A stretch of DNA of 64,000 nucleotides from Pteria penguin (taxonomy: Eukaryota > Mollusca > Bivalvia > Pterioida > Pteriidae), in NCBI GenBank assembly GCA_035048485.1, contig CM068589.1, forward strand, positions 2,978,501 through 3,042,500, in the 5' to 3' direction. The position numbers were made by a program, and so were the translations under genes. The stretch's first letter is position 1; the number at the start of each line of letters is the position of its first letter. A model generated the notes under the pieces. It worked only from the letters and a program-made list of their open reading frames with translations, had not been told where the DNA came from and made no database searches. Of this stretch, positions 15,901 to 30,900 are shown in pieces.

Positions 15901-18900
15901 TAGTATATTAATATATGCATTTTAGAATAAAGAGCGATCAAGGAACGCTTTCTATGTTTATATTTTACTTTTAAGTATACACAGTTTCTTTTTGCCGCAA
16001 GTTTATATCATCAGGCATGGTAGCCGGTGTAAAGCCGAATAATGACCCCCGTCGAATTATGACCGGATAGGTCATTATTCTACGTAGAAAAATGACTCCC
16101 TAGCCGTAGAATAATGAGTCAAAATCGTAGAATAAATACCCGGGGAGTCATTTTTCTACATGTTCGATCTATAGGAAAATGACCCCCATAGAAAAATGAC
16201 CCTATATTGTACTTAATAATATTTGGTATTTTCCACAACATGATAAGTCTTTGAATCACTATGCTGACGGGAATAATACCCCGTGGCAACAATATTTTGT
16301 ATGCTCAAATTGAATATCAAATGTTCTAACAGGATCTTGACAATAAGGTTGTGACCTTGACCTTTCGCACACGACCTTGATACACGTTCATAACACACTA
16401 GCATACTTAAAGGAACAAATATACCGAAAATGATATATACCCATTCATACAAGTAACAGATATACACTGGACAAGAATTATGCAATAGTTACCTTGACCT
16501 TTGACCTACAATTTTGGTTCAAGGTCATGGCACATTGGCATCTCCATGGGAAAAAATGTACCAAGTACATGTATGATTATTACCAATTCATACAACTGAA
16601 AGATATCACATACACAAGAATTTTACAAAAGAGTTAATAGTGACCTTTGTTCAAGGTCATGACACATCGATAACTAAAAAGGAACAAATATACCTAGCAC
16701 GATCATTACTCATTTATACAACTGAAATATATAGCTCGAACAAACATTTTGCAAGAGAGTCAATATAGTGACCTTGATCTTCGACCTACGATTTTGGTTC
16801 AAGCATATTTGCATCTCCAGATAAGCAAATGTACCAAGTATGAACATCTACAATCGGAACATCGTCGCATCTTTTTTTAACAAAAATCGTTGTTTTCGTA
16901 TTTGCATTATGATTACATCATCTAATATCATGGAAAAACACACAAATCTATACCATAACGGATTCAGTCATGCAACCAATGCAAAGAGTTAATTGATAAA
17001 ATGATACAAAATACAAAAGAATCTAGCAAAATTTTCATAAAACCTTTTAAGATAAATGCAAGATTGGTGTGGGTGGGTAGGGGTACTCCGATTTTATGAT
17101 CAGCACTAGTGTTTACACATTTGAACCACGATTGGCTACAAATCATTCGGTTACTATTTCTATATTTCATGGACTCGTATTTTAACCAAAGATGCAAAAA
17201 CATGCGCACAAAACATGATGATAATATACCAAATTCTATAGGCACTACACTGATCCTTACATGAACAAAATCTATTCGAATGTTTCTTTAAGCTCGCTGA
17301 AGATGCATTGGAATGCAATTAGATGGATTTTAAATTATTGCAAGCACATGTGATTTACATGCAGAACTCCAAATTCATATTCATTGCTTTGAGGAGCCAT
17401 ATTTGCATTTTTTGTAAGTTTCCTAATATAGCTCCGCCAAATTTTAAGATTTTTTTAGCAAATGCTAGAGACTTAAACACTCTTTCAAGCTCCATTTTCT
17501 TATAATTGTACTCAAATTGGAGAGCTAGCTATCATGGGACTTTGATTCGAGACTGTATTTCATTTCAAACTTCGAAGCAGCTAAAGCCCCAGTGACATCG
17601 GATCGTACGATTTCTATATCGTACGATTGATGGAAATTTGATGACATTGCGATCGATCGTCGATGTTTGCTACGATCTCAAAAGGTAATCGCATACTGCG
17701 ATTAATTTACGATCGGTGGTAGGTCATCGCACGACATGTGGCACGATTGGTCATGCGATTACCATAATATTGATCGCACGATCAGTCGCAGGTGATCTTA
17801 AGACCGGTCCTGAGGATTAGCAACTGATCAGGCGAATTAAACATGGTCACCTACGATCAGTTGCATGGCCAATTGCAACCAAAAGCAGCACGTCGCAGCT
17901 AGAAGTTACGACCAATCGCTAAAATGTACCACCAGTCGCACAACCAACCACGTGACCACTTGCATGCGATATCTTATACGATTGGTGGTGCGTCCATGTA
18001 GGACTAGTCGCACGACGATACAAGACCTGTCTGCGACCAATGAAACTTCTTAAATGATTGTTCAATCGCAGGTGGTTGTAGGTAAATTTTGAACATGCTT
18101 AAAACTTGGCTACGACTTATTTTGATCGTGCGATCACCCAAAATCTTTCCGATTGGTCGCACGGCTATTCTACGATTTACATCCGATTTCTATTTTTTCA
18201 GTCGCAGAAAGGTTGTATCCTGGTCGCAAGCCCGGTGCGACTGGGGCTTTAATCATCGCGATTCGTTTCTTCATAAACTTCGTATATCTGAAGTATGAAA
18301 TCAAACTTAAAATTAATAATTGAAGCCCCTTTTATAAGAAAAAATAAAAATTTCTTTATAATACTTCATTACTGTCATCAAAATCAAAAATTATTTTAAA
18401 AGTGAACAATAATGAAATCAAATAGTGATTACAGGCGAGTTTCTTTAGACATACAGGTAACCCTTGAAAACCACCACGCACTATTAAACTCGGCGTTCTT
18501 ATTCAACTATGACTATTAAAGTCACGATTCATATCAGAACTGTGTGTTCTGTTTCACGCCCATAATTTTCAATATTGTAGACTGCAATATTCTTCTCCAG
18601 ATTGACTCAGAATGAAACATTTTGCGTAAAATTGTAAACAATTTTCCGGGGGGTTGGGATGCCCCCGAACACCCCTAGCAGGATCGCGCCTTAAGCGCTT
18701 CGCGAATCGAATCCCTCTCTCATAGTTTTCTGGCTATGGCCATGGAAATTCATGTTGAACAATCATAATTTGGGATTTTTAAATGTTGGACAATTATGGG
18801 GCACTGTTTTAATATTTTTAAGCTATTTCTGATATAAAAAATCATTTTGTGATATAAAAAAAAACATTTTCTGATATCAAAAATCAATGTTTTGATATCA

Positions 18901-27900: not shown

Positions 27901-30900
27901 AAGTCACAAAATGAGGCGATATCCAGGTTTCGAAGGTCATCGGGTTTATTCAATTTATGAATCAGAATTACATACATATTAACCCTACCGATTTCGGCAA
28001 AAGTCTTTCGCCTACCGCTTTACAACTCAAATCTTCCGATTTCCTAACCTTCTACCAATTTCTCCCTTTGGATGTTTGGCTTCGGAAACCATTGTTGTTT
28101 ACGAAATAAAACTTCGTTTATCCATTTCTCGTTTGATCTGGATCTTGATTGTGATCAATAAAAAAATTAGGTGGTTGAAAATAATCTCAAAAATGCATAC
28201 CAGAATTATCTGAAGTATTATAAGCATCAACATGCACCATATCCACGAACTTTCAGTACACCAAGGTATATATATATAAAAAGTACACATTGAAAACATT
28301 TATCAAGAAATCAAGTCGGTTTGTAGGGGGTCATTATTCTATGGGGGTCAATATTTTTCACGAGGGGTTTGCAATTTTTGGGGCTGGTGCCACTTATTCT
28401 ACGGTCGAATAATGACCCCCTTGGTCGTGGAATAATGACCGGGGGGTCATTTTTCTATGTAGAATAATGACCCCCGGTCATTATTCGACGGGGGTCATTA
28501 TTCGGCTTTACACCGGCAATGTAAATCGGTTTCTTGACAATTTATACCGGTACGTGATCATTGTTAACAATCTAGACGTACACGTGATCAATGTTGACAT
28601 TCTAGACTTGCACGTGATCATTGTTAACAATCTAGACGTACACGTGATCAATGTTGACATTCTAGACTTGCACGTGATCATTGTTAACAATCTAGACGTA
28701 CACGTGATCAATGTTGACATTCTAGACTTGCACGTGATCATTGTTGACAATCTAGTCTTGCTCGTGATCATTGTTAACAATCTAGACGTACACGTGATCA
28801 ATGTTGACAATATAGACGTGCACGTGATCATTGTTAACAATCTAGACGTACACGTGATCAATGTTGACAATATAGACGTGCACGTGATCATTGTTAACAA
28901 TCTAGACCTGCACGTGATCATTGTGTACAAATTAGCCGTCACGTGATCATTGTTGGCAATCTAGACGTGAACGTGACAATTCTTGACAATCTAAACGAGC
29001 ACGTGATAATAATTGACCATCTAGACGTACACGTGATCATGTTTCGAATGAATCAGTTCTTCAAACTACCTTACAATATTAATAACATAACGACATCAGT
29101 TTTAAATGTTAATCCAAATATTGTCTTGATGCTATAGCAAATCACTTTGTATTGGTTATATATCTTACTACGGGGAATGATAAAATAGTTCTAGACCAGA
29201 TTCACTTCCTTTAAGGGTAAAACCACATTCAAATTAATTTTAATCATATTGAATGTTTTAACAACAACAACAACAACAGCAACTTTATTCTTATTCTTCT
29301 TACTTTTTACATCATGCCCAACGTAAGTACAAAACAATGTAGTAATGACACCAATGTCTTTCTAATTTTGACAGAAATTTATCTCAATGGCGTCCATGAT
29401 GATCTGGATTGCATGTCGAACTATGTTTATTGTTCGCAGTCAAACAGGTGTATCTCATCCAATTCGTCAAAAGCCATACTAAGGCAGTGTAAAACAAGTG
29501 AGGAGCCAGCGAGAGAACCCTCCCAAACTCCGTGTCCGGGATATATGCACTGTAAGGGTAAGGACAACTTTCATATGGTGTGTGTGTCCGAACAACACGT
29601 CTGTGATGGGATACCGCACTGTCCACACTGGGATGACGAAGTTGATTGTCCATTACCTTGTCCAGCAGACTGCACACACTGTGATCGAAAACGTTTCAAG
29701 TGTTTACCTTCGGCGGTTTCGGACATTCCAATCCGCGCTGCTTACATCGATTTATCTGGCCATAGTATAGATATTAAAACGGTTTGCTCAAAGAAGAGAG
29801 TGCATCTCGTTTTCCTGAACATCTCCTCCTCTGGTGTTAGTAACGCTGATTGTTTGTTTAACAGTACCTTATTCCCTTATCTACAACGTGTGGATTTATC
29901 CTCTAACAGCATCATGGATCTCTATAAACACGACAGAAGTTTTGTCAGTATTATTGACGTGAGTTCAAACCCTATTAGTGTAATGTACAATGTGGATCTC
30001 TGTAAAACACTAGTGTTGAGGAAATGTAATATATCGGAGATATTCTGGGTGTATGAACAAATGAATGGAATTGATTACACACACATTATTTTAGCTTTCA
30101 ATCAAATCCCGCCTCACTATGCCCAGGTACCCGATACAGCGGACATTGGGTGCCCCAGCTTTAGTATAGATTTAAGCTGGAACAGGCTTTCTCGTTTAGA
30201 TGGTGTGAAAGGATGCTTCACCTTACATAACCTTGACCTTCATCATAATGACATAAAAATCATAAATTCGGATTCTTTCGGGTATTACGCTGACACTTTG
30301 TTAAATCTGACACTGGGTTACAATCGCCTGACAAACATTGGACATGGCGTCTTCTCGGAACTAAAACGTCTTCAAAAACTCGAAATAACGGCTAACGATA
30401 TCACATACATACACGAGGATGCTTTTAGTGATTTACAGAAACTAATTATTCTAGATATGAGCAAGAATATTATACGTTACCTAGCAACAAAAACATTTCA
30501 ATATTTATATTCCTTGGAGGAGTTATATTTACAACAAAATCACTTAGAAAGTGTACACATGTTAACTTTTTCGCAGCTGTGGAACCTTCGGATACTTGAT
30601 TTACATCACAACAATCTGTCATTCATACCTGAGGGGTTATTCCATAATTTGCAGAACTTGAAATACCTCGATATAAGTCAAAACAACATTAAGATCACCT
30701 GGAATATGTTTAGAGGACTCGGGAAGTTGGTGGACCTGAAAGTACATAGTTTTACTTTGTGTTGTGTGCGACCAAGGAATATTGAGAGCCGTAAATGTTA
30801 CTCCCCGGAATATACTCTGTCATCATGTGCTCATCTTCTACCGAGGGGGTTTCTCGGTATTATCATCTGGTTCGTGGGTTCTGCAATTTTTGTGCAGAAC

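What the first reader, a model, noticed from the sequence alone, without database searches (positions are those of the whole stretch)
16028..28512. Apparently complete 12.5-kb Ginger-type transposon with exact ends, CCGG duplication and an uninterrupted 849-residue transposase
Seen directly: matching TGTAAAGCC...GGCTTTACA termini 12,485 bp apart, CCGG on both flanks, and three exons whose phases join to one frame with HHCC, D177/D236/E272 (D35E) and GPY/F residues all intact. Known: Ginger elements are cut-and-paste transposons with Gypsy-like integrases. Inference: it inserted recently in the intron of a receptor gene and could still be mobile. The size is unusual for the class because several other elements sit inside it.
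Basis: partly seen in the sequence, partly recalled or inferred. Interest (0 to 1): 0.85.

Follow-up and report, generated by a model that had tools for sequence, protein, structure and literature searches.

The report
Young 12.5-kb Ginger1 DNA transposon
This is a complete, unusually long cut-and-paste jumping gene of a known type (Ginger1), one of roughly a hundred near-identical copies spread through this animal's genome, apparently by one recent burst, so it is a clear new member of a known family rather than a new kind of element.

Summary
Of 43 sized copies 13 are 12.3-15.7 kb, 29 are 2.0-6.5 kb, 1 is 9.5 kb. Twenty compared copies give 313 private against 11 shared variants: nearly a star, i.e. 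a short burst from one source. Three of six full-length copies examined keep the frame. Insertion prefers GCCGGC (19 of 25 two-sided sites). The extra length is shared by the full-length copies. "Still mobile" and "in a receptor intron" are not shown. New member of a known kind, unusual in length (published Ginger1: about 2.6-7 kb, PMC2836005).

The parts
16024..16027 (.). left target-site duplication CCGG
   Evidence: CCGG at 38 of 40 left junctions of the family
16028..16100 (+). left terminal inverted repeat (73 bp), begins TGTAAAGCC
19448..19809 (+). exon 1 of transposase (first Met of the 849-aa frame; a later Met at 19556 gives 813 aa); first half of H2C2
20393..20592 (+). exon 2: rest of H2C2, first catalytic Asp (D177)
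20700..21170 (.). palindromic MITE-like block in intron 2, present in five other full-length copies
21345..21634 (.). second palindromic MITE-like block in intron 2
21750..22138 (.). third palindromic block in intron 2
22767..24754 (+). exon 3: D236, E272, GPY, linker, OTU domain, C-terminal extension, stop
24107..24442 (+). OTU cysteine-protease domain; D637, C640 and H751 are the expected triad (triad roles recalled)
   Evidence: Pfam PF02338 1.3e-10; DGNC invariant and the His nearly invariant in 22 relatives; model mean pLDDT 92.8
28442..28512 (-). right terminal inverted repeat (71 bp)
28513..28516 (.). right target-site duplication CCGG
   Evidence: CCGG at 46 of 49 right junctions

Best explanation
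It is an autonomous-type Ginger1 cut-and-paste DNA transposon with an OTU-bearing transposase, and a member of one young family of about 108 copies. Inferred mechanism: the integrase-like transposase binds the inverted repeats, cuts the element out, and joins it with a 4-bp stagger into CCGG, preferring GCCGGC, which makes the CCGG duplication. The family arose in a short burst from one source element that was already about 12.4 kb. Most copies then lost their interior, probably when repair of the excision gap stopped before copying the middle back. Shown: termini, duplication, frame, domains, copy number, near-star divergence, deletion sizes and junctions, target preference. Inferred: splicing, catalysis, gap repair, role of OTU.
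For: anatomy; copies: 215 termini at up to 3 mismatches; 43 cores, 39 exact, 4 with 1 mismatch, 0 with 2-3; 19 other copies read: 5 not internally deleted, 14 internally deleted at 12 distinct junctions with 1-11 bp microhomology or 1-8 bp filler; 3 of 6 frames intact counting the window; 43 sizes; near-star; 19 of 25 two-sided sites are G-CCGG-C, against 16 of 190 CCGG in local background, 12 of the 16 in one tandem array; 28,484 GCCGGC in the genome; 19 reverse-transcriptase-bearing rows on one side of a branch, 99/92; the window is among the 38 rows on the other side.
Against: Activity is not shown. Splice junctions have no RNA evidence. A same-locus empty allele was not seen; I looked at one assembly only. 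One copy (C5:56971158) has CCGG on the left but TTTG on the right; L017 has an extra G on the left; three one-sided sites (L060, L070, L072) read GCGG. Three of the 11 shared variants cut across the two deletion pairs, so the star is not perfect over all 20 copies. The window copy's private codon changes are 4 replacement to 1 silent (L030 1 to 2, L034 2 to 2), too few to show selection either way.
Confidence: 0.93

Rival explanations
1. It is a Gypsy LTR retrotransposon remnant or solo integrase gene that happens to lie between two inverted repeats.
For: The integrase is Gypsy-like; the best PDB sequence match is Ty3.
Against: No reverse transcriptase or RNase H family in the three exon ORFs scanned (other ORFs inside the element were not scanned); inverted termini recurring as units (15 read, 215 termini); the tree places it away from the reverse-transcriptase-bearing rows.
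Confidence: 0.02
2. The two inverted repeats are independent insertions of a short element that bracket an unrelated 12-kb stretch.
For: Short derivatives with the same ends exist.
Against: 13 of 43 sized copies have the 12.3-15.7 kb size at separate places; L009 and L019 align to the window element from end to end.
Confidence: 0.01
3. The deletion derivatives look as they do because copies with a truncated transposase gene are selected against, not because gap repair is short-tract.
For: 11 of 12 junctions remove the whole gene; given that, both arms of 3,454 bp or less are expected in 92%.
Against: Similar arm limits on both sides also fit limited repair synthesis; 12 junctions cannot separate the two.
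Confidence: 0.35
4. The element targets Pol III promoters as Ty3 does (Ty3 targeting recalled).
For: 10 of 64 sites, one of them (L017) a doubtful variant, lie at the head of a tRNA-like repeat at one position.
Against: Exact heads make up 6,123 of 28,484 GCCGGC sites, 21%; 3 of 19 two-sided GCCGGC insertions hit exact heads, no excess.
Confidence: 0.04

Closest known systems
Ginger1 (Bao, Kapitonov, Jurka 2010, PMC2836005; parts 1-2 of 5 of the text and passages seen)
   Same: CCGG 4-bp duplication, TGTNR end, 40-270 bp inverted repeats, H2C2 + DDE + GPY/F, OTU C-terminus, 2 introns as in the Aplysia Ginger1-1_AC, >100 copies as in Ginger1-2_HM
   Different: 12.5 kb against 2.6-7.1 kb in their Table 1; 849 aa against about 500-800; target preference extends to GCCGGC (their target logo is in a figure not held here, so this may already be visible there)
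Ginger2/TDD
   Same: integrase-like cut-and-paste transposon with TGTNR ends
   Different: 4-5 bp duplications, AT-rich RTATAY targets, no GPY/F (PMC2836005)
Gypsy/Ty3 integrase
   Same: H2C2, DDE, GPY/F
   Different: copy-out through reverse transcriptase and LTRs; the tree separates them
Unnamed animal proteins: P0003 (source without organism name), Mercenaria LOC128550298 (P0004), Antedon 863 aa (P0005)
   Same: integrase core plus OTU: 68% identity over 29% of the query (P0003), 60% over 39% (P0004), 40% over 96% (P0005)
   Different: only the proteins were returned; element structure not seen

Membership tests
Ginger1 | 4-bp CCGG (or CCGT) duplication | tested here: met
   CCGG at 38 of 40 left and 46 of 49 right junctions
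Ginger1 | TGTNR termini and 40-270 bp inverted repeats | tested here: met
   TGTAA, 73/71 bp
Ginger1 | H2C2 zinc finger and DDE core | tested here: met
Ginger1 | GPY/F motif | tested here: met
   (GPY at 415-417); the Pfam SH3_Tf2-1 match there is 24.8 bits, below the cut-off of 30
Ginger1 | YPYY motif upstream of the zinc finger | tested here: inconclusive
   KYP...NF...HY present in exon 1 but the published alignment figure was not available
Ginger1 | C-terminal OTU or Ulp1, not both | tested here: met
   OTU 1.3e-10, no Ulp1 listed at E up to 0.05
Ginger1 | groups apart from Gypsy integrases | tested here: met
   62 rows picked by me from the listed hits, 57 used, 5 dropped for want of the motif. 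No named Ginger1 reference sequence was in the tree
Ginger1 | length about 2.6-7 kb | tested here: not met
   12,485 bp (coordinates); a reported range, not a definition
Ginger1 | transposase acts on these ends | not testable with these tools
   needs an excision assay

The most novel reading that the evidence does not exclude
One Ginger1 element, perhaps arriving by horizontal transfer, founded the whole family in a single burst: the copies derive from one sequence at about one time with no older generation left, and the same large unit, with its palindromic cargo and deubiquitinase-type domain, spread although it is nearly twice the longest published size; whole-gene deletions then shut it down.
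Probability: 0.3. Interest if true: 0.6.

Novelty: new member of a known kind. Interest (0 to 1): 0.42.

Why it matters
It gives a Ginger1 family with full-length copies, intact frames, deletion derivatives of different relative age and many insertion sites in one large assembly. That makes testable why Ginger1 transposases carry ubiquitin/SUMO-type proteases (an open suggestion of Bao et al. 2010, passages), how long DNA transposons spread, and whether loss of the whole transposase gene is repair mechanics or selection.

Tried and rejected
SUMO-interaction motif: the linker before the OTU domain holds a repeated CSDxDTIIIGEE; under a fixed definition (definition recalled) 4 of 27 linkers hold a motif, the window's own not among them, reached by 386 of 2000 shuffles with [VIL], 25 of 2000 with [VI] only, and 5 of 27 reached by 540 of 2000 with [VILMF]; two further proteins were left out for want of a GPY match; not supported. 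Pol III targeting: rejected (see rivals). A first tree lost 22 rows through a too narrow motif, 21 of them reverse-transcriptase rows; replaced. The test that all OTU and Ulp1 rows form one clade was rejected (p 1e-53): unlabelled and reverse-transcriptase rows fell among them in that faulty tree; the OTU label still needs 6 changes, so OTU is not confined to one clade of the Ginger side. The 234 and 241 first-look candidates were first taken for copies; one search suggests that they count both ends. Early notebook figures (13 deleted copies, 11 junctions) are superseded by 14 copies and 12 junctions. No tRNA gene was called at the L021 junction; the tRNA model match there, 22.8 bits, is below Rfam's cut-off of 29. 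ARAGORN and Rfam were run on that junction only. Fold search of the OTU model was not accepted.

Full report
Check of the observation. The termini, the CCGG flanks, the exon borders and the residues are as stated. The arms align over 73 and 71 bp with score 115; the best of 200 shuffles was 26. PDB sequence matches are Ty3 and retroviral integrases for the core and OTUD1/OTUD5 for the OTU part. In 22 related proteins DGNC is invariant and the His nearly so; the OTU plus C-terminal stretch gives a model of mean pLDDT 92.8, pTM 0.71, on a 24-row alignment. Triad roles are recalled.

Copies. The window lies in a held genome of 838 Mb in 49 contigs. The 37-base left end with up to 3 mismatches, which also admits right ends, occurs 215 times; the first 100 places are listed and all match exactly. 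Halving gives about 108 copies. A 33-base piece around D236 occurs 43 times with up to 3 mismatches: 39 exact, 4 with one, none with two or three. Of the 100 listed left ends, 36 are the nearest same-strand left end (within 60 kb) of some core and 64 have none; 26 of 43 cores lie at the standard distance.

Structure of copies. One search lists 40 places, the window and 39 others. Five are not internally deleted (L009, L019 with a 3.3-kb insert, L030, L034, L036; the last three were read only to about element base 9,600). Fourteen are internally deleted, at 12 different junctions; L023/L037 share one and L025/L027 another. L027 contains 935 N and its right end was not read. Eleven of 12 junctions take out the whole transposase gene. 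With breakpoints placed at random 15% of deletions would leave both arms at 3,454 bp or less; 11 of 12 do (P about 1e-8; the cut-off was chosen after seeing the data). Sizes of 43 copies, 34 by pairing ends and 9 by reading: 13 of 12.3-15.7 kb, one of 9.5 kb, 29 of 2.0-6.5 kb; 6 of the 40 right ends found no partner among the left ends used, and L027, L034 and L036 are not among the 43.

Frames. The window copy, L030 and L034 keep the 849-aa frame; L009, L019 and L036 have indels in exons and many stops. So three of six examined are intact.

Age. Mean pairwise substitution is 0.46% over 20 copies; among the six full-length ones all 145 variant columns that all six cover are private to one copy. 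Over all 20, with columns covered by fewer than four copies or lacking a majority letter left out, 313 variants are private and 11 shared; 8 of the 11 mark the two pairs with shared deletions, 3 do not. Private divergence per copy is 0.07-0.35%. This is close to a star: copies come from one source within a short time, and two deletion derivatives multiplied afterwards (L023 and L037 differ by 6 of 4,246, P 3e-4 against the mean). No clock was applied. Because only copies with a 100% identical left 273 bp were read, older copies could be missing from that sample; the core count (no place with 2-3 mismatches in 33) argues against many, but more diverged relatives were not searched for.

Target. 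At 64 sites (40 left ends and 24 further right ends; 25 of the 64 read on both sides) CCGG stands at 38 of 40 left and 46 of 49 right junctions; 19 of 25 two-sided sites are G-CCGG-C. Local background has 16 GCCGGC in 190 CCGG, 12 of the 16 in one tandem array; the genome has 28,484 GCCGGC, the reversed control CGGCCG 19,969. Ten of 64 insertions sit at one place in the head of a tRNA-like repeat whose 18-base head occurs 6,123 times exactly: so many uninterrupted counterparts of the site. The share is what sequence preference alone predicts. Four sites (L011, L034, L037, L091) share one further repeat and four (L033, L035, L058, L062) another, by eye.

Family. In a tree of 57 integrase cores, 19 reverse-transcriptase-bearing rows form one side of a branch (99/92, one side in 96% of 200 bootstrap trees); the window, the other 25 OTU rows, 4 Ulp1 rows and 8 unlabelled rows form the other; nearest is P0003. 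With CCGG, TGTNR, GPY and OTU this is Ginger1 as described in PMC2836005; passages of PMC10045372 also give 4 bp as the Ginger1 duplication. Table 1 of PMC2836005 gives 2.6-7.1 kb. I saw no longer Ginger1 in what I read; five paper searches were made (one search returned nothing), and beyond the four papers opened I saw only listings. Passages of PMC6431247 say that transposition drops above 6 kb of cargo. Passages of PMC10294476 count 98 Ginger elements in a survey of bivalve and other mollusc genomes, so Ginger in molluscs is known. The host was not identified; the nearest relative with an organism name is from Mercenaria.

Judgement. A well-founded new, long, young Ginger1 family.

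Noticed in passing
window 29221-31587 (+): Long ORF with leucine-rich repeats and a rhodopsin-type 7TM domain, the receptor near which the element lies; upstream exons not identified.
   Followed up: partly
window 4980-6087 (+) and 33668-35668 (-): ORFs resembling reverse-transcriptase pieces by eye (recalled motif); three of them (4980-5681, 34259-35005, 35009-35665) had no Pfam hit at 1e-3, the rest were not scanned.
   Followed up: partly
window 28534-28946: 30/60-bp minisatellite directly beside the right target duplication.
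   Followed up: no
G000 C5:56971158-56983479: Full-length-size copy with CCGG on the left but TTTG on the right flank: flank rearranged or two copies recombined.
   Followed up: no
G000 C11:46182930, C11:18573016, C7:31926562: Transposase cores whose nearest same-strand left end among the 100 listed exact ones lies 26-49 kb away: large nested insertions or composite units, unless an unlisted or inexact left end lies nearer.
   Followed up: no
L019, element base 1471: 3.3-kb insertion inside a full-length copy, not seen in the other copies read.
   Followed up: no
P0195 (Branchiostoma lanceolatum, named GIN1) and P0139 (Frankliniella fusca, named Gag-Pol): P0195 carries reverse transcriptase and OTU and groups with Gypsy rows; P0139 carries OTU without reverse transcriptase and groups with the Ginger side.
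   Followed up: partly
window 24443-24751: About 100-residue C-terminal extension after the OTU domain, similar in the nearest relatives (by eye), no Pfam family.
   Followed up: no
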